A stretch of DNA of 64,000 nt from Roseospira goensis (GTDB lineage: Bacteria > Pseudomonadota > Alphaproteobacteria > Rhodospirillales > Rhodospirillaceae), in the NCBI RefSeq assembly GCF_014197795.1, contig NZ_JACIGI010000017.1, positions 29,487 to 93,486 on the forward strand, read 5' to 3'. Below the pieces are notes generated by a model. It was not told where the DNA came from. It searched no databases and saw only the letters and a program-made list of their open reading frames with translations. Position numbers and translations under genes: made by a program. This document shows, piece by piece, positions 12,304 through 23,546 of the stretch. The first letter of the stretch is position 1. Each line of letters opens with the position of its first letter.

Positions 12304-13650
12304 CTAGTCCTTGTTGGCCTGGAAATAGGCCCTGCTGATGGCGAACACGGTGCCACTGAGGGCGATCAGCGCGATCAGGTTCGGGATCGCCATCATGGCG
12401 TTCATGATGTCGGCGATGGTCCAGATCAGGCCCAGGTTGCCGATGGCCCCGACGACCAGCGCCAGCACCCAGATGACCCGGAACGGCATCTTGATCCGCG
12501 GCCCGAAGATGAACTGGGCCGCGCGTTCGCCGTAGTAGCTCCAGCCGAGCACGGTCGTGAACGCGAACACCACCAGGCCGAGGCTCACGATCCAGTGGCC
12601 GCCGGGCAGGCCGGTCTCGAAGGCCAGGGCGGACAGCTCGGCGCCGGTCTCGCCGCTGGTCCAGGCCCCGGTGATGATGATGACCAGGGCGGTCATGGTG
12701 CAGACGATGATGGTGTCGATGAAGGTACCCAGCATGGCGACGCAGCCCTGGCGCACCGGGTCGTTGGTCTTGGCGGCGGCATGGGCGATGGGGGCGCTGC
12801 CCAGGCCGGCCTCGTTGGAGAACACGCCGCGGGCGACGCCGAACTGGATGGCCGCGACCACGGCCGCGCCGGTGAAGCCGCCGGCCGCCGCCGTGCCGGT
12901 GAAGGCGTCGGTGAAGATCATGCCGAGCGCCGCCGGCACCGCGCTGTAGTTGGCGCCCAGGATGATGAGGGCGCCCGCCACGTACAGGATGGCCATCAGC
13001 GGCACCAGGTGCTCGGCGACGCTGCCGATGCGCCGCACGCCGCCGACGATGACCAGGAAGGTCAGGACCGCCAGCACGAGACCGGTCGCGAGGGTGGGCA
13101 CGCCGAACGAGCCCTCCAGCGCCTTGGCGACCGAATTGGCCTGCACGGTGTTGCCGATGCCGAAGGCGGCGATGGTGGCGAAGAAGGCGAACACCCAGCC
13201 CAGCCAGGCCCAGCGACCGCCCAATCCGTTGCGGATGTAGTACATCGGGCCGCCGACGTAGCGCCCGGTCTCGTCGGTCTCGCGGTAGCGCACCGCCAGC
13301 ACCGCCTCGGCGTACTTGGTGGCCATGCCCACCAGCGCCGTCAGCCACATCCAGAACACCGCGCCGGGGCCACCCAGGTAAATGGCCGTGGCCACGCCGG
13401 CGATGTTGCCGGTGCCGATGGTGGCCGACAGCGCCGTGGTGAGCGCCTGGAACGGTGTGATCTCGCCCTCGTGGCCTTCCACCACCTTGCGGCCGCCCAG
13501 CATGAGCCGGAACCCGTAGCCCAGCTTGCGCACGGGCAGCAGGCGCAGGCCGAGGGTGAGGTACAGGCCGGTGCCGAGCAGCAGCACCAGCATGACCGGT
13601 CCCCAGACGAAACTGCTCACGTCTCCCAGAAGAGATGACACATAGTCCAT
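12304..13650 (-). CDS. Sodium/alanine (or glycine) symporter, AGCS family
   Basis: A 448-residue membrane transporter with the AGCS signature: TTALSATIGTGNIAGVATAI near residues 75-95, the GGPGAVFWMW motif, and GGPMYYI. It imports small neutral amino acids, mainly alanine or glycine, with sodium. AGAGGTC lies upstream of ATG 13650. It is transcribed away from a folate one-carbon cluster that starts 634 bp away, where glycine uptake would make metabolic sense, but specificity is inferred only. Confidence 0.9.
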   Translation of the reverse strand: MDYVSSLLGDVSSFVWGPVMLVLLLGTGLYLTLGLRLLPVRKLGYGFRLMLGGRKVVEGHEGEITPFQALTTALSATIGTGNIAGVATAIYLGGPGAVFWMWLTALVGMATKYAEAVLAVRYRETDETGRYVGGPMYYIRNGLGGRWAWLGWVFAFFATIAAFGIGNTVQANSVAKALEGSFGVPTLATGLVLAVLTFLVIVGGVRRIGSVAEHLVPLMAILYVAGALIILGANYSAVPAALGMIFTDAFTGTAAAGGFTGAAVVAAIQFGVARGVFSNEAGLGSAPIAHAAAKTNDPVRQGCVAMLGTFIDTIIVCTMTALVIIITGAWTSGETGAELSALAFETGLPGGHWIVSLGLVVFAFTTVLGWSYYGERAAQFIFGPRIKMPFRVIWVLALVVGAIGNLGLIWTIADIMNAMMAIPNLIALIALSGTVFAISRAYFQANKD

Positions 13651-14284: not shown

Positions 14285-15679
14285 ATGGACACGCCCCTTT
14301 CCCCCGATACCCCCGTCGTGAATGCCGCCGCCGCCACGGTCGAGGCCGCCGTGGCTGCCGCCAGCCTCGATCCGACCACCCGCCAGTGCCCGACGGTCGA
14401 CCAGTCCGACCGCACGGTGCCCATCAACCTGCGCCAGAGCGGGCCGACTCCGGTGCAGATGCTGATCTCCACCCGGGTCCGGAAGTCGCCGTACTGGCAC
14501 CTGGCGCACAAGGCGGGCTGCTGGCGCGCCACCGTCTACAACCGCATGTACCACCCGCGCGGCTATGTGCGGCCGGAGGACGGCGGCGCCATGGTCGAGT
14601 ACGACGCGCTGGTCAACCACGTCACCATGTGGAACGTGGCCGTCGAGCGGCAGATCCAGGTCAAGGGGCCCGACGCCGAGGCGTTCGTGAACACGGTCGT
14701 CACCCGCGACGTCACCCGGATCGCGCCGATGCGGGGCAAGTACGTGATCCTGTGCAACGAGGAGGGCGGCATCCTCAACGATCCCGTTCTGCTCCGCCTG
14801 TCCGAGGACGAGTTCTGGTTCTCGCTGTCCGACAGCGACCTTGAGATGTGGCTGCGCGGCGTGAACCTGGGCCTTGGCATGGATGTGACCATCAAGGAGA
14901 TCGACGTCGCCCCGGTGCAGATTCAGGGACCCAAGTCCAAGGCGCTGATGGAGGATCTGGTTGGTCCGGCGATCCGGGACGTGCCCTACTACGGCCTGCT
15001 GGAGGCCCAGGTGGGCGGCCGTGACGTGGTCATCTCGCAGACCGGGTTCTCGGGCGAGGCCGGCTACGAGATCTACCTGCGCGATGCCACCCTGTACGCC
15101 GACGACATGTGGAACGCGGTCCTGGAGGCCGGGCAGAAGCACAACCTGATGGTCATCGCCCCCGCCCACCACCGCCGCATCGCCGCCGGGATCCTGTCCT
15201 GGGGCCAGGACCTGGACCAGGAGACGCTGCCGTTCCAGTGCAACCTGGGCTACCAGGTGCCGCGCAAGAAGACCGCCGACTACATCGGCAAGGCCCGCCT
15301 GGAGCAGGTGCGCGCCGAACTGGAGGCGGGCGGTGAGCCCTACGCCATGCAGCTCGTCGGCATGGTCCTGGGCGGCCAGCCGATCACCGACTACGCGCCG
15401 GACTTCTGGTTGATCTCCGGCGCCGATGCCGGCGCGCCCCTCGGCTACGTCACCTCGCCCTGGTACTCGCCGGAGCTGGGGACCAACATCGCCATGGGCT
15501 ATGTCCCCTATGGCCTGCGGCACGAGGGCACCCGGCTGACCGTGTGGCTGCCCGACGCGTACGCCGAGACGGCCGGCGCGCCGGTCAACGCGCAGGTGGT
15601 GCCGATGCCGTTCCGGGCCTCGGCCAATCCCAGCGCGCGCGAACTGGCGCGCGGTCAGGGCCGCGACAGCGCCTATTAA
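14285..15679 (+). CDS. DmdA/GcvT-like THF-dependent demethylase (substrate unknown)
   Basis: The 464-residue protein has the GcvT fold. An N-terminal extension of about 60 residues is followed by a DmdA-like core: VYNRMYHPRGY, WNVAVERQIQVKGPDA, GGILNDPV, QTGFSGEAGYEIYL, AAGILSWGQDLDQETLPF and a C-terminal barrel from about residue 370. DmdA moves a methyl group from DMSP to tetrahydrofolate. Related enzymes act on vanillate (LigM), glycine-derived amines and others, so the substrate here is open. It is followed by MTHFR-like and formate-THF ligase genes, the same logic as ligM-metF-ligH in Sphingobium. A convergent choline-to-betaine operon lies downstream, making betaine, dimethylglycine or DMSP candidate substrates. 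Confidence 0.75.
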   Translation: MDTPLSPDTPVVNAAAATVEAAVAAASLDPTTRQCPTVDQSDRTVPINLRQSGPTPVQMLISTRVRKSPYWHLAHKAGCWRATVYNRMYHPRGYVRPEDGGAMVEYDALVNHVTMWNVAVERQIQVKGPDAEAFVNTVVTRDVTRIAPMRGKYVILCNEEGGILNDPVLLRLSEDEFWFSLSDSDLEMWLRGVNLGLGMDVTIKEIDVAPVQIQGPKSKALMEDLVGPAIRDVPYYGLLEAQVGGRDVVISQTGFSGEAGYEIYLRDATLYADDMWNAVLEAGQKHNLMVIAPAHHRRIAAGILSWGQDLDQETLPFQCNLGYQVPRKKTADYIGKARLEQVRAELEAGGEPYAMQLVGMVLGGQPITDYAPDFWLISGADAGAPLGYVTSPWYSPELGTNIAMGYVPYGLRHEGTRLTVWLPDAYAETAGAPVNAQVVPMPFRASANPSARELARGQGRDSAY

Positions 15680-15872
15680 TGGTCTGATGGCCCGCCGAAC
15701 CCGGGCCGGGAACCCAGGCGGGGTTCGTCCCGGGTTCCGCCCGGCGCTGCGCCGCATCGGTGTGCCACATCGGTGCGGGGCGGCGCGGGGCGGGGCCGGC
15801 CCCGCCTGGGACCAGCGTCCCAAGACACGCGCCGCACCACGCGCGGCAGCCCCGCACCCGCCGGAGGGGATC

Positions 15873-16787
15873 ATGCCTTACGACAGTCTCCATGCCGCTC
15901 CGGTCGCCGCCCGGGCGGTCGCGCCGGCCGCGGTGCCGGACGGCGTCTCGCTGGAGGTCACGCCCGGCGTGGCCGCGAAGATCCCGTCCTTCGCCGCCCT
16001 GCTGCCGCCCGGCACGGCGGTCTATGTCACCAATCTGCCCGGAACCGACGTGGCCCAGGCCATGACGCTGTGCCGGCGGCTGCGCGACGAGGGCCTGCGC
16101 CCGGTGCCCCATCTGGCGGCGCGCGGCCTGAAGAGCCGGGCCGATCTGGCCGACTGGCTCGACCGGGCCGTGCACCAGGGCGGCGCGCGGCAGATCCTGT
16201 TGATCGCCGGCTCCGGCGACCGTCCGGCCGGGCCGTTCCGCGACACCCTGGCGGTGCTGGACAGCGGTCTGCTGGAGGCCGCCGGCCTGGAGGGCTTCGG
16301 CGTCGCGGGCCATCCGGAGGGCCATCCCAACGCCGGCCCGGCGGTCCTGCGCGAGGCCCTGTTGCGCAAGCAGGCCTTCGCCGAGTCGCACGGCCTGTCG
16401 GCCTGGATCGTCACCCAGTTCGCGTTCAGCGCCGCCCCGGTGCTGCGTTGGGCGGAGGGGCTGGCGGCCGCCGGCGTCACGCTGCCGATCCGCGTCGGTC
16501 TGCCGGGACCGGCCAAACCCGCCACCCTCATCACGTATGCGCGCCAGTGCGGCGTCGGCGCCTCGTTGCGGGTGCTCACGCGCCGGCCGGATGTCATGGC
16601 CGGGCTGTTGCGGGCCTGGACGCCGGACGCCATCGTCGCCGATCTTGTCCGCGCCGGACGGTCCGAGGGGCCGGCGCGCATCGCTGGGGTGCACCTGTTC
16701 CCGTTCGGCGGCTTCGCCAAGGCGGCGGGCTGGGCCGGCGCCGCCCTGGGCGGGCCGGCGGGCGCGGCCGTGGCGGCGGCCCACTGA
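15873..16787 (+). CDS. Methylenetetrahydrofolate reductase-like flavoprotein (MetF family)
   Basis: A 304-residue TIM-barrel protein resembling a divergent MetF. The SLEVTPG strand keeps the catalytic glutamate of [14 protein letters not shown] corresponds to PHLTC, the LLIAGSGD segment keeps the flavin-contacting Asp, and GHPEGHP and TQFAFS match later family blocks. ATG 15873 follows GGAGGGG. It lies 193 bp after the DmdA-like gene. In a demethylation pathway it would oxidise 5-methyl-THF to 5,10-methylene-THF, the reverse of its usual biosynthetic role. It is unlikely to be the housekeeping MetF because of its sequence divergence and location. Confidence 0.8.
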
Positions 16788-16845
16788 CGGCGGGACATGC
16801 GTCCCACGGCATCACGCGATCCATTGTCGCGCAGAGGGGGTTTCC

Positions 16846-18630
16846 ATGACCTATCACACGGTGGGCGCCGCCCAGGCTCCCTTCGACGTCACCTCGCCCG
16901 GCCCGGCGGTGGCCCCGGCCGCCCGGCCGGTCGAAGACGACGGCCTGCCGCCGCCAGGGACGCCGGATATCGAGATCGCCCGCGCCGCCCGGCCGCGTCC
17001 GATCCTGGCGCTGGCCGAGGATCGGCTGGGCCTACCGGCCGAGGCGCTGATCCCGCACGGCCACACCAAGGCCAAGGTGACGCTCGACCATATCGCCGGC
17101 CTCAGGGCGCGCACGCGCGGCAAGCTGGTGCTGGTGACCGCGATCACGCCGACCCCGGCGGGCGAGGGCAAGACCACGACCACGGTCGGGCTGGGCGACG
17201 GCCTCAACCGCATCGGCCACCACGCCGCGGTGTGCCTGCGCGAGCCGTCGCTGGGGCCGTGCTTCGGCATGAAGGGCGGGGCGGCCGGCGGCGGCCGTGC
17301 GCAGGTGATCCCGATGGAGGACATCAACCTCCACTTCACCGGCGATTTCCACGCCATCGGCGCCGCCCACAACCTGCTCGCCGCGTTGATCGACAACCAT
17401 CTGCACTGGGGCAACGCTCAGGATATCGACCTGCGCCGGGTGAGCTGGCGCCGGGTGATGGACATGAACGACCGCGCGTTGCGCACCATCACCCTGGGCC
17501 TCGGCGGCGCGGCCCATGGTGTGCCGCGCGAAGGCGGCTTCGATATCACCGTGGCCTCGGAGGTGATGGCGATCCTGTGCCTGGCGACGGATCTGGCCGA
17601 CCTGGAACGCCGCCTGGGGGACATCGTCATCGGCCAGCGCCGCGACCGCACGCCGGTGTTCGCCCGTGATCTGGGGGCCGCCGGGGCCATGGCGGTGCTG
17701 CTCAAGGATGCGCTGGCGCCCAATCTGGTGCAGAGCTTGGAGGCCAACCCGGCCTTCATCCATGGCGGGCCGTTCGCCAATATCGCCCACGGCTGCAATT
17801 CGGTGATGGCGACCGACACCGCGCTGCGCCTGGCCGACGTGGTGGTGACCGAGGCCGGCTTCGGCGCCGACCTGGGGGCCGAGAAGTTCCTGCACATCAA
17901 GTGCCGGCAATCGGGCCTGCGGCCGCATGCCGCGGTGGTGGTGGCGACGGTGCGGGCGCTCAAGATGCACGGCGGCGTCGCCAAGGGCGACCTGGGTACA
18001 CCCGATGCCGACGCCGTGCGCCGCGGCGGCGTCAACCTGCGCCGCCACGTCACCAACCTGCAGCGCTTCGGGCTGGCGCCGGTGGTGGCGGTCAACCGTT
18101 TCACCGGCGATGCCGACGCGGAACTCGATGCGGTGCGCGCCCTGTGCGATGACCTGGGGGTGCCCATGGCGCTGGCGTCGCACTGGGCCGAGGGCAGCCA
18201 CGGCAGCGCCGAGCTGGCCCGGCTGGTGGCCGAGCGCCTGGACGGACCGGCACCCGAGGTGCGGTTCCTGTACGACGAGGCGACGCCGCTGGCGGACAAG
18301 ATCCGCGCCGTGGCGACTCAGCTCTACGGCGCCGCGGACATCGCGCTGGATCCGGCAGCGGCGCGCCGTCTGGCCGAGATCGCGGACCTGGGCTACGGCC
18401 ACCTGCCGGTGTGCATTGCCAAGACCCAGTACAGCTTCAGCAGCGATCCGGCCGCCAAGGGCGCGCCCGTGGGCCACGTCCTGCCGGTGCGCGAGGTGCG
18501 GCTGGCCGCCGGGGCGGGGTTCGTCGTGGCGGTCTGCGGCGACATCATGACCATGCCGGGGCTGCCGCGCGATCCGGCGGCGCTGCACATCGGCTTGGAC
18601 GCGGGGGGCGAGATCGTGGGCTTGACGTGA
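16846..18630 (+). CDS. fhs: Formate-tetrahydrofolate ligase
   Basis: At 594 residues this is about 35 longer than the usual enzyme, because of an N-terminal extension before [14 protein letters not shown]. The ATP site [13 protein letters not shown] is near residue 105, and [18 protein letters not shown] and the [14 protein letters not shown] block are conserved. It interconverts formate plus THF and 10-formyl-THF with ATP. Following a DmdA-like demethylase and a MetF-like reductase, it would release methyl-derived carbon as formate with ATP gain. No folD gene is present in the cluster. Confidence 0.93.
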
Positions 18631-18656
18631 TCCGTGCGGACTCGCCGCGCGCGTTC

Positions 18657-18698
18657 GAGGACGCCGCGCCGGAGCGCCTCCCCGGCGCGGCGTTCCTC
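18657..18698. terminator. Strong hairpin between convergent fhs and choX
   Basis: A GC-rich inverted repeat (GAGGACGCCGCGCCGG paired with CCGGCGCGGCGTTCCTC) with a short loop sits between the two convergent transcription units. It is nearly symmetrical and probably ends both. Confidence 0.6.
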
Positions 18699-18720
18699 CT
18701 CCGGATGCGTGTCGCCCGCG

Positions 18721-19695
18721 CTACTCCATCAGCGCCGCCTCGACGGCCGGCAGCCCGGGTGCGCCGTCGACCGTGGTCACGCCCTCCAGCCACGGCGCCA
18801 GCAGGTCGGGGTTGGCGGCCAGGTACTTGGTCGCCGCACTTTCGGCGGTCTCGCCGTGGTCGAGGATCGCGCCCATCAGGATGTTCTCCATCTCCACCGT
18901 GAAGGCGAGGTTATTCAGGAACCGGGCCAGGTTGGGGCATTCGTCCGACAGGCCCGCGCGGGTCAGGGTGTGCACGGTGGCGCCGCCCTGGTTCGGCCCG
19001 AAGTAGGCGTCGCCGCCGGTCAGGTAGACGATGTCCATCTTGGTGTTCATCGGATGCGGCGCCCAGCCCAGGAAGGCGATCCACTCCTCGGACTGCCAGG
19101 CGCCGCGGGCCTGCAGCAGCATGCCGGCCTCGGAGCTTTCGATAAGCTGCCAGTCGGCCAGCCCGAAGGCGTCGGCGTCGATCATGTCCTGGATCAGCAG
19201 GTTGCCGTCGTTGCCGGGCTCGATGCCGTAGATCTTGCCGCCGAACCTGTCCTTGTGGGCGTCCAGGTCGGCCAGGTCGGTGACGCCGGCGTCGGCGGCA
19301 TACTGCGGCACCACCAGGGTGTACTTGGCGCCCTCCAGGTTGGTGCGCACACGGTCGATGGCGCCGCTGTCCAGGCGCTCCTGGACCATGCCGGCCATGG
19401 ACGGCATCCACAGCCCCAGGAAGACGTCGATGTCGCCCTGTTCCAGGCCGATGAAGGTGAGCGGCACGCTGGTCACCTTGACGTCGGTGTCGTAGCCCAG
19501 CGCATCCAGCACGGTGGTGGCGACCCCCGTGGTGGCCTGGATATCGGTCCAGCCGACCTCGGCCAGGCGGACCTGACGGCAGGACTCGGACACCTCGGCC
19601 AGGGCCGGGCCGGCGGCGGCCGTGGTGGCCAGCGCGCCCAGGGTCAGGGCGGCACCGGCGAGCGTGGTCTTGGTCTTGGTCTTGGTTGGGGTCAT
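18721..19695 (-). CDS. choX: Choline/betaine ABC transporter substrate-binding protein (ChoX-like)
   Basis: A 324-residue periplasmic protein of the OpuAC/ChoX type, with EVGWTDIQATTGVA, FLGLWMPSM and AWQSEEWIAFLGWAPHPMN near the expected ligand-box positions. The signal peptide has a lysine-threonine repeat (MTPTKTKTKTTL) coded by a short ACCAAG-type repeat, then a hydrophobic core ending AGPALA. ATG 19695 follows AGGGAGC. It is 55 bp downstream of betA on the same strand, so it belongs to the bet operon. The permease (choW) and ATPase (choV) genes that normally accompany it are absent. Confidence 0.88.
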   Translation of the reverse strand: MTPTKTKTKTTLAGAALTLGALATTAAAGPALAEVSESCRQVRLAEVGWTDIQATTGVATTVLDALGYDTDVKVTSVPLTFIGLEQGDIDVFLGLWMPSMAGMVQERLDSGAIDRVRTNLEGAKYTLVVPQYAADAGVTDLADLDAHKDRFGGKIYGIEPGNDGNLLIQDMIDADAFGLADWQLIESSEAGMLLQARGAWQSEEWIAFLGWAPHPMNTKMDIVYLTGGDAYFGPNQGGATVHTLTRAGLSDECPNLARFLNNLAFTVEMENILMGAILDHGETAESAATKYLAANPDLLAPWLEGVTTVDGAPGLPAVEAALME

Positions 19696-19750
19696 GGGTG
19701 TTGCTCCCTGTGGGGCTTGTCTGTGTGTCGGCGGCGGACAGTCTGACCCG

Positions 19751-21457
19751 TTACGGGGTCGCATTGAAGGGGCGGTCGCTCCTTGACCGCTGCCGGGTCT
19801 CCCAGCCCTCGACCAGCGAGACCGGCGCCGCCTCGGGCGGCAGCGGCGTCCGGCCCCGGATCACATCGGCCAGCTTCTCCGCCAGCATGATCGTGGGGGC
19901 GTTCAGGTTGCCGGAGACGATGCTCGGCATGATCGCGGCATCGACGACGCGCAGGCCCTCGACCCCGTGCACCCGGCCCGCCGGCGAGACGACGGCCATC
20001 GGGTCGCTGTCCGGCCCCATGGCGCAGGTGCAGGAGGGGTGATAGGCGCTCTCCACCAACTGCCGCGCCCAGGCGTCGATCTCGGCGTCGGTGCGCACGT
20101 CCGGTCCCGGCGCCACCTCGCCGTCGTTGAAGGGCGCGAGGGCCGGCTGGGTCATGATCTCGCGCGTCAGCTTGATGCCGTCGCGCATCTCGCGGCGGTC
20201 GCGCTCGGTGGAGAAGTAGTTGAACTGGATCCGCACCTTGTCGCGGGGATCGGCCGACCGCAGCCTGACCCAGCCGCGGCTCTCGGGGCGCATCGGCCCC
20301 ACATGGGCCTGATAGCCGTGCATGTCCTGCATGCCGCTGCCGTCGTAGGCGGCGGCGACGGGCAGGAAGTGGTACTGGATGTTGGGGTGCTTCACGCCCG
20401 GCTCGGAGCGGATGAAGCCGCCCGCCTCGAAGTGGTTGGTGGCCCCCGGGCCGGTGCCGCGCAACAGCCATTCCAGGCCGATCCGAAGCTGATTCTGCGG
20501 CTTCAGGACACCGTATAGGGTCTCGGCCGTCTTGCAGCGGTACTGCACGTAGACCTCGGGGTGATCCTGGAGGTTGGCCCCAACCCCCTTCAGGTCCACC
20601 AGCGGGTCGATCCCGTGTTCGCGCAGCGCGTCGGCATCGCCGATGCCCGACAGCATCAGCAGGTGCGGTGAGTTGAAGGCGCCGCCGGCGAGGATCACCT
20701 CCCGCGTCGCGCGCGGGCGCTTGGTGCCGTCGGGGGCCTTCAGTTCCACGCCGACCGCCGTGCGGCCCTCGAACAGCACGCGGCCCACCAGCGCGCGGTC
20801 GATCAGGGTCAGGTTGCGCCGCTTCAGGGCCGGGCGCAGGTAGCCGACGGCGGTAGACGAGCGCCGGCCCTTGCCGACGCTCATGTCCATGGGGCCGAAG
20901 CCCTCCTGGCTTTCGCCGTTCAGGTCGTCGGTGCGGCGGTAGCCGGCCTGCACCCCGGCCTCGATGAAGGCATCGTAGAGCGGGGTCCAGCGGGTGCCGC
21001 GGGTGACCTTCGTCGGGCCGCCGACCCCGTGGTAGGGGTTGGGGCCGACCTGCGGGAAGTCCTCGCTCTTCTTGAAGTAGGGCAGGCAGTGGGCGTAGTC
21101 CCAGGACGGATCCCGGGTCTGTTCGGCCCAGCGGTCGTAGTCCAGGGCATGGCCCCGGATGTAGCACATGCCGTTCACCGAGCTGGACCCGCCCCACACC
21201 TTGCCGCGCGGCTGATACATGCGGCGGCCGTCGACGTGGGGTTCGGGCTCGGTCTCGTAGGCCCAGTTGAACGTCTTGGTCTTCAGCGGCCAGGCGAAGG
21301 TCGCCGGCATGTGGATGTACAGGCTCCAGTCGCGCCAGCCGGCCTCGATCAGCAGCACGGAGACATCGGGGTCCTCGGTCAGCCGGTTGGCCAGCACGCA
21401 GCCGGCGGATCCGGCGCCGACGATGATGTAGTCGTAGCGGCTCTTGAGGGCGGGCAT
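19751..21457 (-). CDS. betA: Choline dehydrogenase (GMC oxidoreductase)
   Basis: A 568-residue FAD enzyme. The dinucleotide-binding motif VGAGSAGCVLANRL is at the N-terminus, GMC signature 1 is GKVWGGSSSVNGM, and the C-terminal active-site histidine region is AYHPSCTCAMG with a second His/Asn in SGNLNAPTIM. It oxidises choline to betaine aldehyde, probably at the membrane. Its ATG overlaps the betB stop by one base (TGATG), so the two are translationally coupled. Upstream in-frame extension inside betB was rejected. Confidence 0.93.
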   Translation of the reverse strand: MPALKSRYDYIIVGAGSAGCVLANRLTEDPDVSVLLIEAGWRDWSLYIHMPATFAWPLKTKTFNWAYETEPEPHVDGRRMYQPRGKVWGGSSSVNGMCYIRGHALDYDRWAEQTRDPSWDYAHCLPYFKKSEDFPQVGPNPYHGVGGPTKVTRGTRWTPLYDAFIEAGVQAGYRRTDDLNGESQEGFGPMDMSVGKGRRSSTAVGYLRPALKRRNLTLIDRALVGRVLFEGRTAVGVELKAPDGTKRPRATREVILAGGAFNSPHLLMLSGIGDADALREHGIDPLVDLKGVGANLQDHPEVYVQYRCKTAETLYGVLKPQNQLRIGLEWLLRGTGPGATNHFEAGGFIRSEPGVKHPNIQYHFLPVAAAYDGSGMQDMHGYQAHVGPMRPESRGWVRLRSADPRDKVRIQFNYFSTERDRREMRDGIKLTREIMTQPALAPFNDGEVAPGPDVRTDAEIDAWARQLVESAYHPSCTCAMGPDSDPMAVVSPAGRVHGVEGLRVVDAAIMPSIVSGNLNAPTIMLAEKLADVIRGRTPLPPEAAPVSLVEGWETRQRSRSDRPFNATP

Positions 21458-22938
21458 CAGTAGGGGGCCTCCAGGGGTCCGGGTTCCACATAGACGCTCT
21501 TGACGCGGGTGACGTGCTCCAGCGCGGCGCGGCCGTTCTCGCGCCCCAGGCCGGACTGTTTCACGCCGCCGAAGGGCATCTCGATCGGGGTGATGTTGTA
21601 GGTGTTGATCCACACCACGCCGGCCTCCAGGCGGGCGGCGACGCGGTGGGCGCGGGTCAGGTCGCGGGTCATGACGCCGCCGGCCAGGCCGACGGGCAGG
21701 CTGTTGGCGCGGGTCACCGCCTCGTCCTCGGTGTCGAACGGCAGCACGGTCATGACGGGGCCGAAGATCTCGTCGCGGCACAGGGGCAGGGCGTCGTCCT
21801 CGGCCAGGAACACCGTCGGGCGGACGAACGGCTTGCCGGCGAGCGCCGGATCATCGGGAGCGCCGCCGCCGGTCAGCAGCCGGGCGCCGTCGGCCCTGGC
21901 GCGGTCGATATGGGCCAGGACAGACCGATGGTGCTCGGGCGAGATCAGCGGCCCCATCTGGGTCGCCGGATCCAGCGGATCGCCCAGCCGGATGGCCTCG
22001 GCACGCGGCAGCAGGCGGGCCAGGACCGCGTCCAGGATGCCGCGCTGCACGAACACCCGGGTGCAGTTGGTGCAGATCTGGCCCTGGGTATAGAAGTTGC
22101 CGAGGATGGCGGCGGAGACCGCGTCGTCCACGTCGGCGTCGTCGAACACCAGCAGCGGCGACTTGCCACCCAGTTCCAGCGTCAGGACCTTGAGCGTGGC
22201 GGCGCTGTCGGCCATCACCGCCTTGCCGGTGTTGATCTCCCCGGTGAAGGAGATCTTGGCGATGCCCGGGTGCGCGGTCAGCATCCGGCCCACCGCCGCG
22301 TCGCCCTGCACCAGGTTGAACAGGCCCGGCGGCGCGCCGGCCTCGTGCAGGACCTCGGCCAGGATGGTGGCGGACAGCGGGGTCTGTTCGGCCGGTTTGA
22401 ACACCATGGCGTTGCCGGCGGCCAGGGCCGGGGCGGTCTTCCAGCACGCGATCTGGAACGGGTAGTTCCAGGCGCCGATGCCGCCCACCACGCCCAGGGG
22501 CTCGCGCCGGGTGTAGAACCAGGGGCCGGCGCCGTCACCGGACAGGGTCTGCGTCTCGCCGCCGATGGTGGGCGCCAGCGCCGCGAAATACTCCAGGCAG
22601 TCCGCCCCCGAGTCCACGTCGGCCTCCGGCGTCTCCTGGATCGGCTTGCCGCCGTCCAGACTTTCCAGGCGGGCGATCTCGTCGCGGCGGGCGCGGATCA
22701 GATCGGCGGCCCGGGCTAGCACGCGGCCGCGTGCCGCGCCGCCCAGTGCCGCCCAGGCGCGTTGCGCGTCGCGGGCGGCGGCCACGGCGGCGTCGACATC
22801 GGCCGCCGATGCCGTCTGTACCGTGGCGATCACGTCCCCGCTGAACGGGCTGCGGGTCTCGAAGGTGGTCCCCGAGGTCGCGGGACGCGGGGCGCCGCCG
22901 ACGAACAGGGGCCTGGGATCGGGGGGGGAGTCGGTCAT
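21457..22938 (-). CDS. betB: Betaine aldehyde dehydrogenase
   Basis: A 493-residue NAD(P)-dependent aldehyde dehydrogenase. It shows the WNYPFQIACWK cofactor region, the general base in LELGGKSPLLVF and the nucleophile in GQICTNCTRV. The QICTNC pattern and length fit BetB rather than a general ALDH. It converts betaine aldehyde to glycine betaine. The start overlaps the betI stop (ATGA) and the stop overlaps the betA start, giving a tightly coupled betIBA unit. Confidence 0.93.
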   Translation of the reverse strand: MTDSPPDPRPLFVGGAPRPATSGTTFETRSPFSGDVIATVQTASAADVDAAVAAARDAQRAWAALGGAARGRVLARAADLIRARRDEIARLESLDGGKPIQETPEADVDSGADCLEYFAALAPTIGGETQTLSGDGAGPWFYTRREPLGVVGGIGAWNYPFQIACWKTAPALAAGNAMVFKPAEQTPLSATILAEVLHEAGAPPGLFNLVQGDAAVGRMLTAHPGIAKISFTGEINTGKAVMADSAATLKVLTLELGGKSPLLVFDDADVDDAVSAAILGNFYTQGQICTNCTRVFVQRGILDAVLARLLPRAEAIRLGDPLDPATQMGPLISPEHHRSVLAHIDRARADGARLLTGGGAPDDPALAGKPFVRPTVFLAEDDALPLCRDEIFGPVMTVLPFDTEDEAVTRANSLPVGLAGGVMTRDLTRAHRVAARLEAGVVWINTYNITPIEMPFGGVKQSGLGRENGRAALEHVTRVKSVYVEPGPLEAPY

Positions 22939-23546
22939 GGTGATGCCTGTTTCGAGTCCTGCGCCTCACGGAGGGCGGTGTGCAGATAGTGGACGGCCAG
23001 CGCCCGGGTCTCGGCCGGGTCGATGCCGCCGTGGTCGAGGGCGGCGCGCAGCCACAGGCCGTCGATCAGCGTGGACAGCCCCAGGGTGATGCGCGCCACG
23101 GCCTCCGGATCGTCGGGCAGCAGCGCCTTCAGCGCGTGCCGCAGGTTGCTGTGCAGCCGGGCGCTGTTGATGCGCTGGATGCGCGCCAGCCGCGGGCTGT
23201 GGTTCAACCGGCCCCAGAACGCCAGCCAGACCGCGCTGGTGTCGGGGCGGAACTGGTCCGGCCCCAGGTTGGCGTCGATGACCGCGTGCAGCCGCTCCAG
23301 CGGGGTGGTCGCGGCGGCCAGCCGGCGCGCCGTCTCGCGACCCAGCTCGCGGCCGATGTGGCCCATGGTGGCCTCCATCAGCTCGGCCTTGTCGCCGAAG
23401 TAGTGCCCGACGATTCCCGCCGTCAGGCCGGCCCTCTTGGCGATGCGGGCCAGACTGGCGGCCTCCGGGCCGTCCTCGTGGATGGCCTGGATGCAGGCGC
23501 GGATGAGGTCGCGGCGGCGCTGGTCCTTGAGGCTCGGTCGACCCAT
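22935..23546 (-). CDS. betI: BetI TetR-family repressor of the bet operon
   Basis: A 203-residue TetR protein. The N-terminal helix-turn-helix contains SLARIAKRAGLTAGIVGHYFGDK, the characteristic BetI variant (GIVGHYF). The ligand domain includes WLAFWGRL and STLIDGLWLRAAL, also seen in BetI. It represses betIBA and is relieved by choline. It is the first gene of the operon, and an imperfect dyad lies just upstream of its start. Confidence 0.92.
   Translation of the reverse strand: MGRPSLKDQRRRDLIRACIQAIHEDGPEAASLARIAKRAGLTAGIVGHYFGDKAELMEATMGHIGRELGRETARRLAAATTPLERLHAVIDANLGPDQFRPDTSAVWLAFWGRLNHSPRLARIQRINSARLHSNLRHALKALLPDDPEAVARITLGLSTLIDGLWLRAALDHGGIDPAETRALAVHYLHTALREAQDSKQASP

What the first reader, a model, noticed from the sequence alone, without database searches (positions are those of the whole stretch)
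14285..23546. Folate demethylation cluster facing a choline-to-betaine operon
A DmdA/GcvT-like demethylase, a divergent MTHFR-like reductase and formate-THF ligase form one plus-strand unit, ended by a shared hairpin against betI-betB-betA-choX. The three-gene order parallels ligM-metF-ligH of Sphingobium, but the demethylase is of the DmdA branch with an extra 60-residue N-terminus. I infer a pathway taking choline to betaine and then moving methyl groups onto THF and out as formate with ATP gain. The substrate may be betaine, dimethylglycine or DMSP, and this could be an undescribed clade.
Basis: partly seen in the sequence, partly recalled or inferred. Interest (0 to 1): 0.75.

Follow-up and report, generated by a model that had tools for sequence, protein, structure and literature searches.

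The report
Probable folate-dependent glycine betaine demethylase
A bacterial gene next to the choline-to-glycine-betaine genes probably encodes an undescribed enzyme that strips the first methyl group off the common osmolyte glycine betaine and hands it to folate, a step for which no known enzyme was found in this genome.

Summary
In detail: a 464-residue GcvT/DmdA-superfamily protein, a 7xg9-like MTHFR and formate-THF ligase face choX-betA-betB-betI across a strong hairpin. The protein is not DmdA (270 bits, cut-off 410; F for W at the DMSP site; separate clade) and not LigM. Orthologues occur in Alpha- and Gammaproteobacteria, Actinomycetota, Gemmatimonadota and haloarchaea. Of 80 loci, 58 hold a DMGDH-type gene, 54 MetF and 33 SoxA. 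The window genome has betBA, soxBDAG and DMGDH, but searches found no Rieske GbcA family, no MttB family and no free-standing Bhmt, so betaine-to-dimethylglycine has no known enzyme. In 385 genomes the gene and the MttB family nearly exclude each other: MTTB in 2 of 19 carriers, 52 of 55 DMGDH-positive non-carriers; in at least 24 of those 52 it lies within 10 kb of DMGDH. Best reading: an oxygen- and cobalamin-independent glycine betaine:THF methyltransferase, its methyl-THF oxidised by MetF and leaving as formate plus ATP. No activity was measured. Bet adjacency is uncommon (1 of 80 other loci; 6-12 kb away in three further genomes). SAR11_1265, without an assigned substrate in the papers seen, is probably the same family.

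The parts
14285..15679 (+). GcvT/DmdA-superfamily protein, 464 aa; proposed glycine betaine:THF methyltransferase
   Evidence: neighbourhood and displacement
15873..16787 (+). second methylenetetrahydrofolate reductase, 304 aa, 7xg9-like; proposed to run oxidatively (CH3-THF to CH2-THF)
   Evidence: canonical metF beside metH is elsewhere, C13
16846..18630 (+). formate--tetrahydrofolate ligase (Fhs); proposed 10-formyl-THF to formate + ATP
18654..18700 (.). GC-rich hairpin between the convergent fhs and choX genes; 11-bp perfect arms 18662-18672 / 18682-18692
   Evidence: z -3.56; no T-run
18721..19695 (-). choX, choline ABC transporter substrate-binding protein (ORF open to 19764)
   Evidence: TIGR03414 420.5 bits, cut-off 379
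19751..21457 (-). betA, choline dehydrogenase
   Evidence: TIGR01810 762.4 bits, cut-off 732.1
21457..22938 (-). betB, betaine-aldehyde dehydrogenase
   Evidence: PRK13252 700 bits, cut-off 593; TIGR01804 605.6 bits, below its 668.6
22935..23546 (-). betI, choline-responsive repressor
   Evidence: TIGR03384 204.5 bits, cut-off 201.3
12304..13650 (-). divergent Na+/alanine-type (AGCS) symporter; possible but untested uptake partner
   Evidence: TIGR00835 507 bits

Best explanation
The 464-aa protein is a glycine betaine:tetrahydrofolate methyltransferase (demethylase). Glycine betaine, made from choline by BetA/BetB or imported, gives its first methyl directly to THF, yielding dimethylglycine and 5-methyl-THF without oxygen or cobalamin (inferred). 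The MetF next to it oxidises 5-methyl-THF to methylene-THF (inferred). FolD takes it to 10-formyl-THF (inferred; FolD was not sought in this genome). Fhs releases formate with ATP gain (inferred). Dimethylglycine and sarcosine are then demethylated by the DMGDH and SoxBDAG encoded on contig C14 beside GbdR-like regulators (genes shown, activity inferred). In three relatives the demethylase and MetF lie just downstream of that gbdR-soxBDAG-DMGDH cluster; in the window genome they lie apart, opposite betIBA.
For: Gap: the own genome has betBA and gbdR-soxBDAG-DMGDH (DMGDH best PDB match 4pab, 1e-187), but no PF00848, no PF06253, and PF02574 only inside a 1207-aa MetH-type frame. Linkage: DMGDH-type gene within the fetched stretch in 58 of 80 homologous loci, MetF in 54, SoxA in 33, GbdR-like in 7; among 24 non-redundant loci of at least 17 kb, DMGDH 16, MetF 15, Fhs 8, any pathway gene 20. 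R. trueperi (one minus-strand gene between), a Rhodospira MAG and Caenispirillum carry it just after soxBDAG-DMGDH. Displacement: MTTB in 2 of 19 carriers against 52 of 55 DMGDH-positive non-carriers (Fisher 7.7e-12; by family 2 of 14 against 29 of 31, 2.6e-7). The best MTTB is within 10 kb of DMGDH in at least 24 of those 52 (one genome's best hit was not in the printed list). The one MTTB read in full (L148) matches 4yyc, named putative trimethylamine methyltransferase, at 7e-223, then 2qne, and 9yce, named glycine betaine methyltransferase, at 2.5e-120, against 4e-37 for 7xcl/7xcm. One genome with neither gene has GbcA-GbcB-like genes between sox and DMGDH (best models, below their cut-offs). 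Other DmdA-like carriers do not lack MTTB: 17 of 17 DMGDH-positive non-carriers with another DmdA-like protein have it (hand count). Five of 19 carriers have neither MTTB nor any PF00848 protein. A dedicated second MetF is what a methyl (not methylene) donor such as a quaternary ammonium compound would need (general knowledge). Haloarchaeal orthologues (55-63%) sit, in varying sets, with DHFR, MTHFR, GlyA, FolD, BCCT and DMGDH-like oxidoreductases in 4 of 5 regions read.
Against: No biochemistry, and no structure model (prediction switched off). Two carriers also have MTTB (G374 strongly, G320 weakly), and G374 lacks a close DMGDH; this subclade, with Rhodosalinus, may differ. PF00848 proteins occur in 14 of 19 carriers; whether any is GbcA was not tested, and Bhmt was tested in the own genome only. 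SAR11 carriers are reported to have Bhmt (PMC12478193, PMC5069961), so the enzyme would be redundant there or serve oxidation rather than methionine synthesis. A carnitine-monooxygenase-like Rieske stands divergently beside it in SAR11. The best PDB match of the displaced MTTB is named for trimethylamine, not betaine. Four of 24 long non-redundant loci show none of the pathway genes, nor does one of five haloarchaeal regions. Only 9 of 15 carriers with a close DMGDH have the two genes within 10 kb. Shared ancestry of the genomes inflates the p-values.
Confidence: 0.77

Rival explanations
1. It is a DMSP demethylase (DmdA) or acts on a later DMSP intermediate such as methylmercaptopropionate, as Sun et al. 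2011 speculated for SAR11_1265.
For: Closest solved relative is DmdA 3tfh, 4e-46; best NCBIfam model is DmdA; many carriers are marine or halophilic (titles); Sun et al. (PMC3160333, passages) proposed it.
Against: 270 bits against a cut-off of 410; separate clade; the DmdA W197 column is F in 33 of 34; a true DmdA over cut-off coexists in 4 of the 8 carriers seen (G101, G103, G193, G234). The neighbours found are DMGDH/Sox/MetF genes; DMSP genes were not specifically searched.
Confidence: 0.08
2. It demethylates another quaternary ammonium donor (choline, carnitine, TMAO, trimethylamine-type compounds, another betaine), and the betaine genes are only part of a wider methyl-oxidation set.
For: Carnitine-monooxygenase-like Rieske divergent from metF-demethylase in SAR11; partial similarity to TMAO demethylase (173 of 1100 bits); top PDB match of the displaced MTTB is named for trimethylamine; some loci lack DMGDH.
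Against: Exclusion with an MttB-family gene that often lies beside DMGDH points to the betaine-to-dimethylglycine step; GbdR-like regulators (188 bits, cut-off 480, best model) in 7 of 80 loci; GbcAB-like genes in the same slot in another genome.
Confidence: 0.11
3. It takes methyl groups from dimethylglycine or sarcosine, as a helper of DMGDH/Sox.
For: Near DMGDH and Sox in many loci; same superfamily as their C-terminal folate domains.
Against: DMGDH and SoxA already carry their own folate domains; such amines are oxidised to methylene-THF in the known enzymes, so a dedicated MetF would not be needed (general knowledge); it would leave the first methyl step without an enzyme in the window genome.
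Confidence: 0.03

Closest known systems
DmdA, DMSP demethylase (NF009133; PDB 3tfh)
   Same: Same superfamily, roughly 33-44% identity to DmdA-like sequences, THF as methyl acceptor (inferred); many residues shared (N165-D166-P167, E262, Y264)
   Different: Below the DmdA cut-off; separate clade; F for W197; G257/E258 where most DmdA rows have K/Q; conserved N-terminal VDQSDR-NLRQSGPTP segment; different gene context
LigM-MetF-LigH operon of Sphingobium SYK-6 (PMC6888825, passages)
   Same: Same order demethylase-metF-fhs; MetF of the 7xg9 kind (that 7xg9 is the SYK-6 enzyme is recalled)
   Different: The demethylase is not of the LigM family (37 of 580 bits); context is betaine, not aromatics
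MtgBCD cobalamin-dependent glycine betaine methyltransferase (PMC12478193)
   Same: Proposed same net step (betaine to dimethylglycine, methyl to THF); MttB-family genes take the place beside DMGDH in many non-carriers
   Different: Unrelated protein; no corrinoid protein or second methyltransferase needed
GbcAB Rieske glycine betaine monooxygenase; betaine-homocysteine methyltransferase
   Same: Same net demethylation of glycine betaine
   Different: GbcAB uses oxygen and gives formaldehyde; Bhmt gives the methyl to homocysteine (both from PMC12093977, passages); unrelated families; PF00848 and free-standing PF02574 not found in this genome

Membership tests
GcvT/DmdA superfamily | GCV_T and GCV_T_C domains over cut-off | tested here: met
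   PF01571 142 bits, PF08669 42.5 bits
DmdA (DMSP demethylase) | NCBIfam NF009133 equivalog cut-off, 410 bits | tested here: not met
   270.3 bits; the 8 carriers scored 244-275 bits, except the divergent G089 copy, 337
DmdA (DMSP demethylase) | Trp at the DMSP-specific site (W171 in PMC7487153, which I equate with W197 of 3tfh) | tested here: not met
   F in 33 of 34 family rows; W in 8 and Y in 7 of 15 DmdA rows, so the site is not absolute within DmdA
DmdA (DMSP demethylase) | DMSP:THF methyl transfer activity | not testable with these tools
   needs assay
LigM/DesA O-demethylases | NCBIfam cut-offs 580 (LigM) and 800 (DesA) bits | tested here: not met
   36.9 and 47.8 bits
7xg9-type MetF | closest solved structure 7xg9, outside Pfam MTHFR | tested here: met
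   5e-55 to 7xg9 against 2.7e-8 to the next entry; no Pfam hit
Bet choline-to-betaine system | BetA, BetB, BetI, ChoX curated models | tested here: met
   each over at least one curated cut-off; betB passes PRK13252 but not TIGR01804
Glycine betaine:THF methyltransferase (proposed) | product dimethylglycine and 5-methyl-THF from glycine betaine and THF | not testable with these tools
   inferred from gap filling, linkage and displacement

The most novel reading that the evidence does not exclude
A further aerobic route of glycine betaine demethylation, independent of oxygen, cobalamin and homocysteine, made by one DmdA-related enzyme family shared by SAR11/HIMB59, purple bacteria, halomonads, actinomycetes, Gemmatimonadota and haloarchaeal plasmids; SAR11_1265 belongs to it and explains how SAR11 oxidises betaine methyl groups.
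Probability: 0.67. Interest if true: 0.82.

Novelty: new variant of a known kind. Interest (0 to 1): 0.72.

Why it matters
Glycine betaine is an abundant osmolyte in the sea and in brines. A 2025 paper (PMC12478193) still called the mechanisms of its first demethylation elusive and then added MtgBCD to GbcAB and Bhmt. If this reading is true, genomes like the one in the window, where none of those three families was found, gain a defined route that needs neither oxygen nor vitamin B12; a family annotated only as 'aminomethyl transferase' or 'glycine cleavage system protein T' gains a function; and an unassigned SAR11 gene becomes testable with one assay.

Tried and rejected
Tried: canonical DmdA (rejected by score, tree and site); LigM/DesA (rejected by score); bet co-location as the main clue (1 of 80 other loci; BetA 6.4, 6.8 and 12 kb away in G359, G436, G148; genome-level BetA 10 of 19 against 79 of 366, but 43 of 55 in DMGDH-positive non-carriers); Rieske PF00848 as a discriminator (not useful: 59 of 74 genomes, 14 of 19 carriers); an intrinsic terminator (hairpin real, no T-run); viral contigs (one partial orthologue on a 4-kb contig). 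A first gene call by longest ORF failed in GC-rich loci and was replaced by a codon-scored one. The companion protein I first took for FolD (cluster c6) has no Pfam, NCBIfam or PDB match in the members tried.

Choices that shape the counts: 'carrier' means a match of at least 56% identity over most of P0001 (19 of 385, the window's genome included). 'DMGDH-positive' means at least 53% identity to the own-genome DMGDH, or a partial hit of at least 61% (G428, G330, G273). MTTB was counted at E up to 1e-20, PF00848 at 1e-10. Four carriers (G103, G332, G374, G410) have no close DMGDH but were kept in the 19; without them MTTB is 1 of 15. G380's best MTTB was not in the printed list, so its distance was not measured. 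Tree: two long-branched rows (L130, L175) were kept in the tree and, with L174, left out of the residue counts. Of the non-carriers without MTTB, G290 and G386 were not followed. Only one MTTB protein was read in full.
Full report
What is there. Window 14285-18630 (+) holds a 464-aa GcvT/DmdA-superfamily gene, an MTHFR-like gene whose real start is 15873, and fhs. It faces choX-betA-betB-betI, 18721-23546 (-), across a strong hairpin. The window lies in a 4.18-Mb genome. The nearest named orthologues are Rhodospira trueperi and Roseospira navarrensis at 90 and 88%; 6 of the 7 genomes of the genus carry the gene at E up to 1e-60, and 7 of 74 in the family, the window's own included in both counts.

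What it is not. The DmdA equivalog model gives 270 bits against a cut-off of 410 and LigM gives 37 against 580. In a tree of 78 rows the 34 orthologues form one clade with SH-aLRT 100, apart from the DmdA equivalogs (quick method, no bootstrap; the deeper order is partly unresolved and two rows are long-branched). The column of DmdA W197 is F in 33 of 34 orthologues; among 15 DmdA rows it is W in 8 and Y in 7. PMC7487153 (passages read) names W171 in its numbering as the residue for DMSP; I equate it with W197 of 3tfh from the motif. Of the 8 carriers met in the 190-genome sample (G101, G103, G193, G234) also have a DmdA over cut-off. The family has its own N-terminal signature VDQSDRxVPxNLRQSGPTP.

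What it sits with. A DMGDH-type gene is held in 58 of 80, MetF in 54, SoxA in 33, Fhs in 13, a GbdR-like regulator in 7, bet-type genes in 1, and MTTB and GbcA in 0. Collapsed at 85% identity and limited to loci of at least 17 kb, n = 24: DMGDH 16, MetF 15, SoxA 9, Fhs 8, any pathway gene 20, none 4 (L065, L075, L093, L103). Many loci are cut by contig ends, so these are lower bounds; about 24 of the 80 are SAR11/HIMB59-type loci of one gene order. 'GbdR-like' rests on a best model at 188 bits, cut-off 480. In a Rhodospira MAG and in Caenispirillum the order is gbdR-soxBDAG-DMGDH-demethylase-metF; in R. trueperi it is the same with one minus-strand gene before the demethylase. In the window genome the gbdR-soxBDAG-DMGDH part is on another contig, C14. 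In G320 the order is soxGADB, then divergent demethylase-metF-fhs-c6-DMGDH. Haloarchaeal plasmids carry 55-63% orthologues with DHFR, MTHFR, GlyA, FolD, BCCT and DMGDH-like FAD oxidoreductases in varying sets; 4 of 5 regions read show such genes, while Haloarcula sp. GH36 shows none.

The missing step. The window genome can by gene content make betaine and degrade dimethylglycine and sarcosine, but has no PF00848 match, no PF06253 match, and PF02574 only in a MetH-type frame beside a canonical MetF. The genome is 98.6% complete, so a missed gene is possible but not likely three times over. The MetF in the window is thus a second one.

Displacement test. In 385 genomes of the class, 19 carry the gene. 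A close DMGDH is in 15 of 19 carriers against 55 of 366 others (Fisher 4.4e-9). MTTB is in 2 of 19 carriers and 52 of 55 DMGDH-positive non-carriers (7.7e-12; 2 of 14 against 29 of 31 families, 2.6e-7). The best MTTB is within 10 kb of DMGDH in at least 24 of 52; in carriers the demethylase is within 10 kb of DMGDH in 9 of 15. Of three families with both kinds, f31 and f18 agree (f18 with a weak MTTB hit in the carrier) and f107 does not (G374 has both). All 17 DMGDH-positive non-carriers that had another DmdA-like protein have MTTB (hand count), so the exclusion is special to this clade. The three non-carriers without MTTB are G290, G386 and G428. G428 has GbcA-like (420 bits, cut-off 670) and GbcB-like (365, cut-off 500) genes between sox and DMGDH. 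The one MTTB read in full (L148) matches 4yyc, named putative trimethylamine methyltransferase, at 7e-223, then 2qne and the glycine betaine methyltransferase 9yce at about 2e-120, and the trimethylamine enzymes 7xcl/7xcm at 4e-37. That it acts on betaine is inferred from 9yce, from its place beside DMGDH, and from the report that mtgBCD lie near later betaine genes (PMC12478193, section 7).

Bet genes at genome level. BetA over cut-off: 10 of 19 carriers, 79 of 366 others, p 0.004; DMGDH-positive non-carriers 43 of 55. So bet genes go with betaine degradation in general, not with this enzyme in particular. In three carriers of one genus BetA is on the demethylase's contig, 6.4 kb (G359), 6.8 kb (G436) and 12 kb (G148) away.

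Mechanism. Shown: genes, linkage, failure to find the alternatives in this genome, statistical exclusion with the MttB family. Inferred: the reaction, direction of MetF, formate release. A quaternary ammonium donor gives methyl, so 5-methyl-THF must be oxidised to leave the methionine branch; a dedicated MetF fits this, as proposed for LigM-MetF-LigH in SYK-6 (PMC6888825, passages).

Print. Sun et al. 2011 (PMC3160333, passages) list SAR11_1265 next to metF SAR11_1264 as a DmdA-like aminomethyltransferase of unknown substrate and guess the second DMSP methyl; they give betaine to bhmT and suggest another protein, SAR11_1303, for betaine metabolism. In PMC5069961 (passages; table flattened) the two genes fall together in mRNA in stationary phase (0.20/0.12 and 0.10/0.10) while bhmT rises with sulfur limitation under SAM riboswitches. 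That SAR11_1265 is an orthologue rests on the metF neighbour and on Pelagibacteraceae loci L119, L121, L124, L125 (66-67%); I did not read its sequence. PMC12478193 (outline, abstract, passages, section 7) gives GbcAB, SAR11-type Bhmt and MtgBCD as the aerobic routes. PMC3102087 (passages) suspected betaine use in haloarchaea from oxidases and BCCT genes but, in what I read, named no first enzyme. Ten searches listed no paper that, by title, abstract start or the passages I read, assigns betaine to this family; the library holds open-licence papers only, so subscription papers and preprints may.

Limits. No structure model, no assay, one class sample, GbcA and Bhmt not tested in carriers other than the window genome, related genomes counted as independent except in the family collapse.

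Noticed in passing
L146 11260-12129, L115 14110-14901, L057 10455-11351, L147 12950-13849, L093/L101/L102 beside the demethylase, L063 520-1350: A conserved 263-299 aa protein with no Pfam, NCBIfam or PDB match in the members tried accompanies the demethylase/DMGDH/Sox genes in several groups; its motif (HRDTWGS ... GDLLCFSGAHLHAS ... R) looks like an Fe(II)/2-oxoglutarate oxygenase site (recalled motif). No match in the window or in the own-genome stretches fetched.
   Followed up: partly
L035, L037-L044, L179, L182 (tree): A separate unnamed clade of DmdA-like proteins just below the DmdA cut-off (366-383 bits for those scored), with Trp at the 197 site in 11 of 11 rows.
   Followed up: no
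L188 7061-11159 (Phaeobacter inhibens plasmid pP30_b): A 37% homologue of the demethylase on a plasmid typed as conjugative, followed by OsmC, enoyl-CoA hydratase and acyl-CoA synthetase genes, with tyrosine-recombinase genes on both sides.
   Followed up: no
L142 6282-7490, L143 6332-7528: In SAR11-type genomes a Rieske oxygenase, closest in the PDB to carnitine monooxygenase (L142 copy), stands divergently beside metF-demethylase.
   Followed up: partly
L184-L187 (haloarchaeal plasmids): Orthologue with, in varying sets, dihydrofolate reductase, MTHFR, GlyA, FolD, BCCT, DMGDH-like oxidoreductases (two in L184), creatininase-family and aspartoacylase-family genes: an apparent archaeal betaine-degradation island.
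   Followed up: partly
L129 4538-9163 (own genome C28): A second soxB-soxA set, about 64% (SoxB) and 50% (SoxA) to the copies beside DMGDH in relatives, of unknown substrate.
   Followed up: no
L130 5157-6383 (own genome C1): A long-branched second DmdA-like protein (408 aa; DmdA model 179 bits, TMAO demethylase model 184 bits).
   Followed up: no
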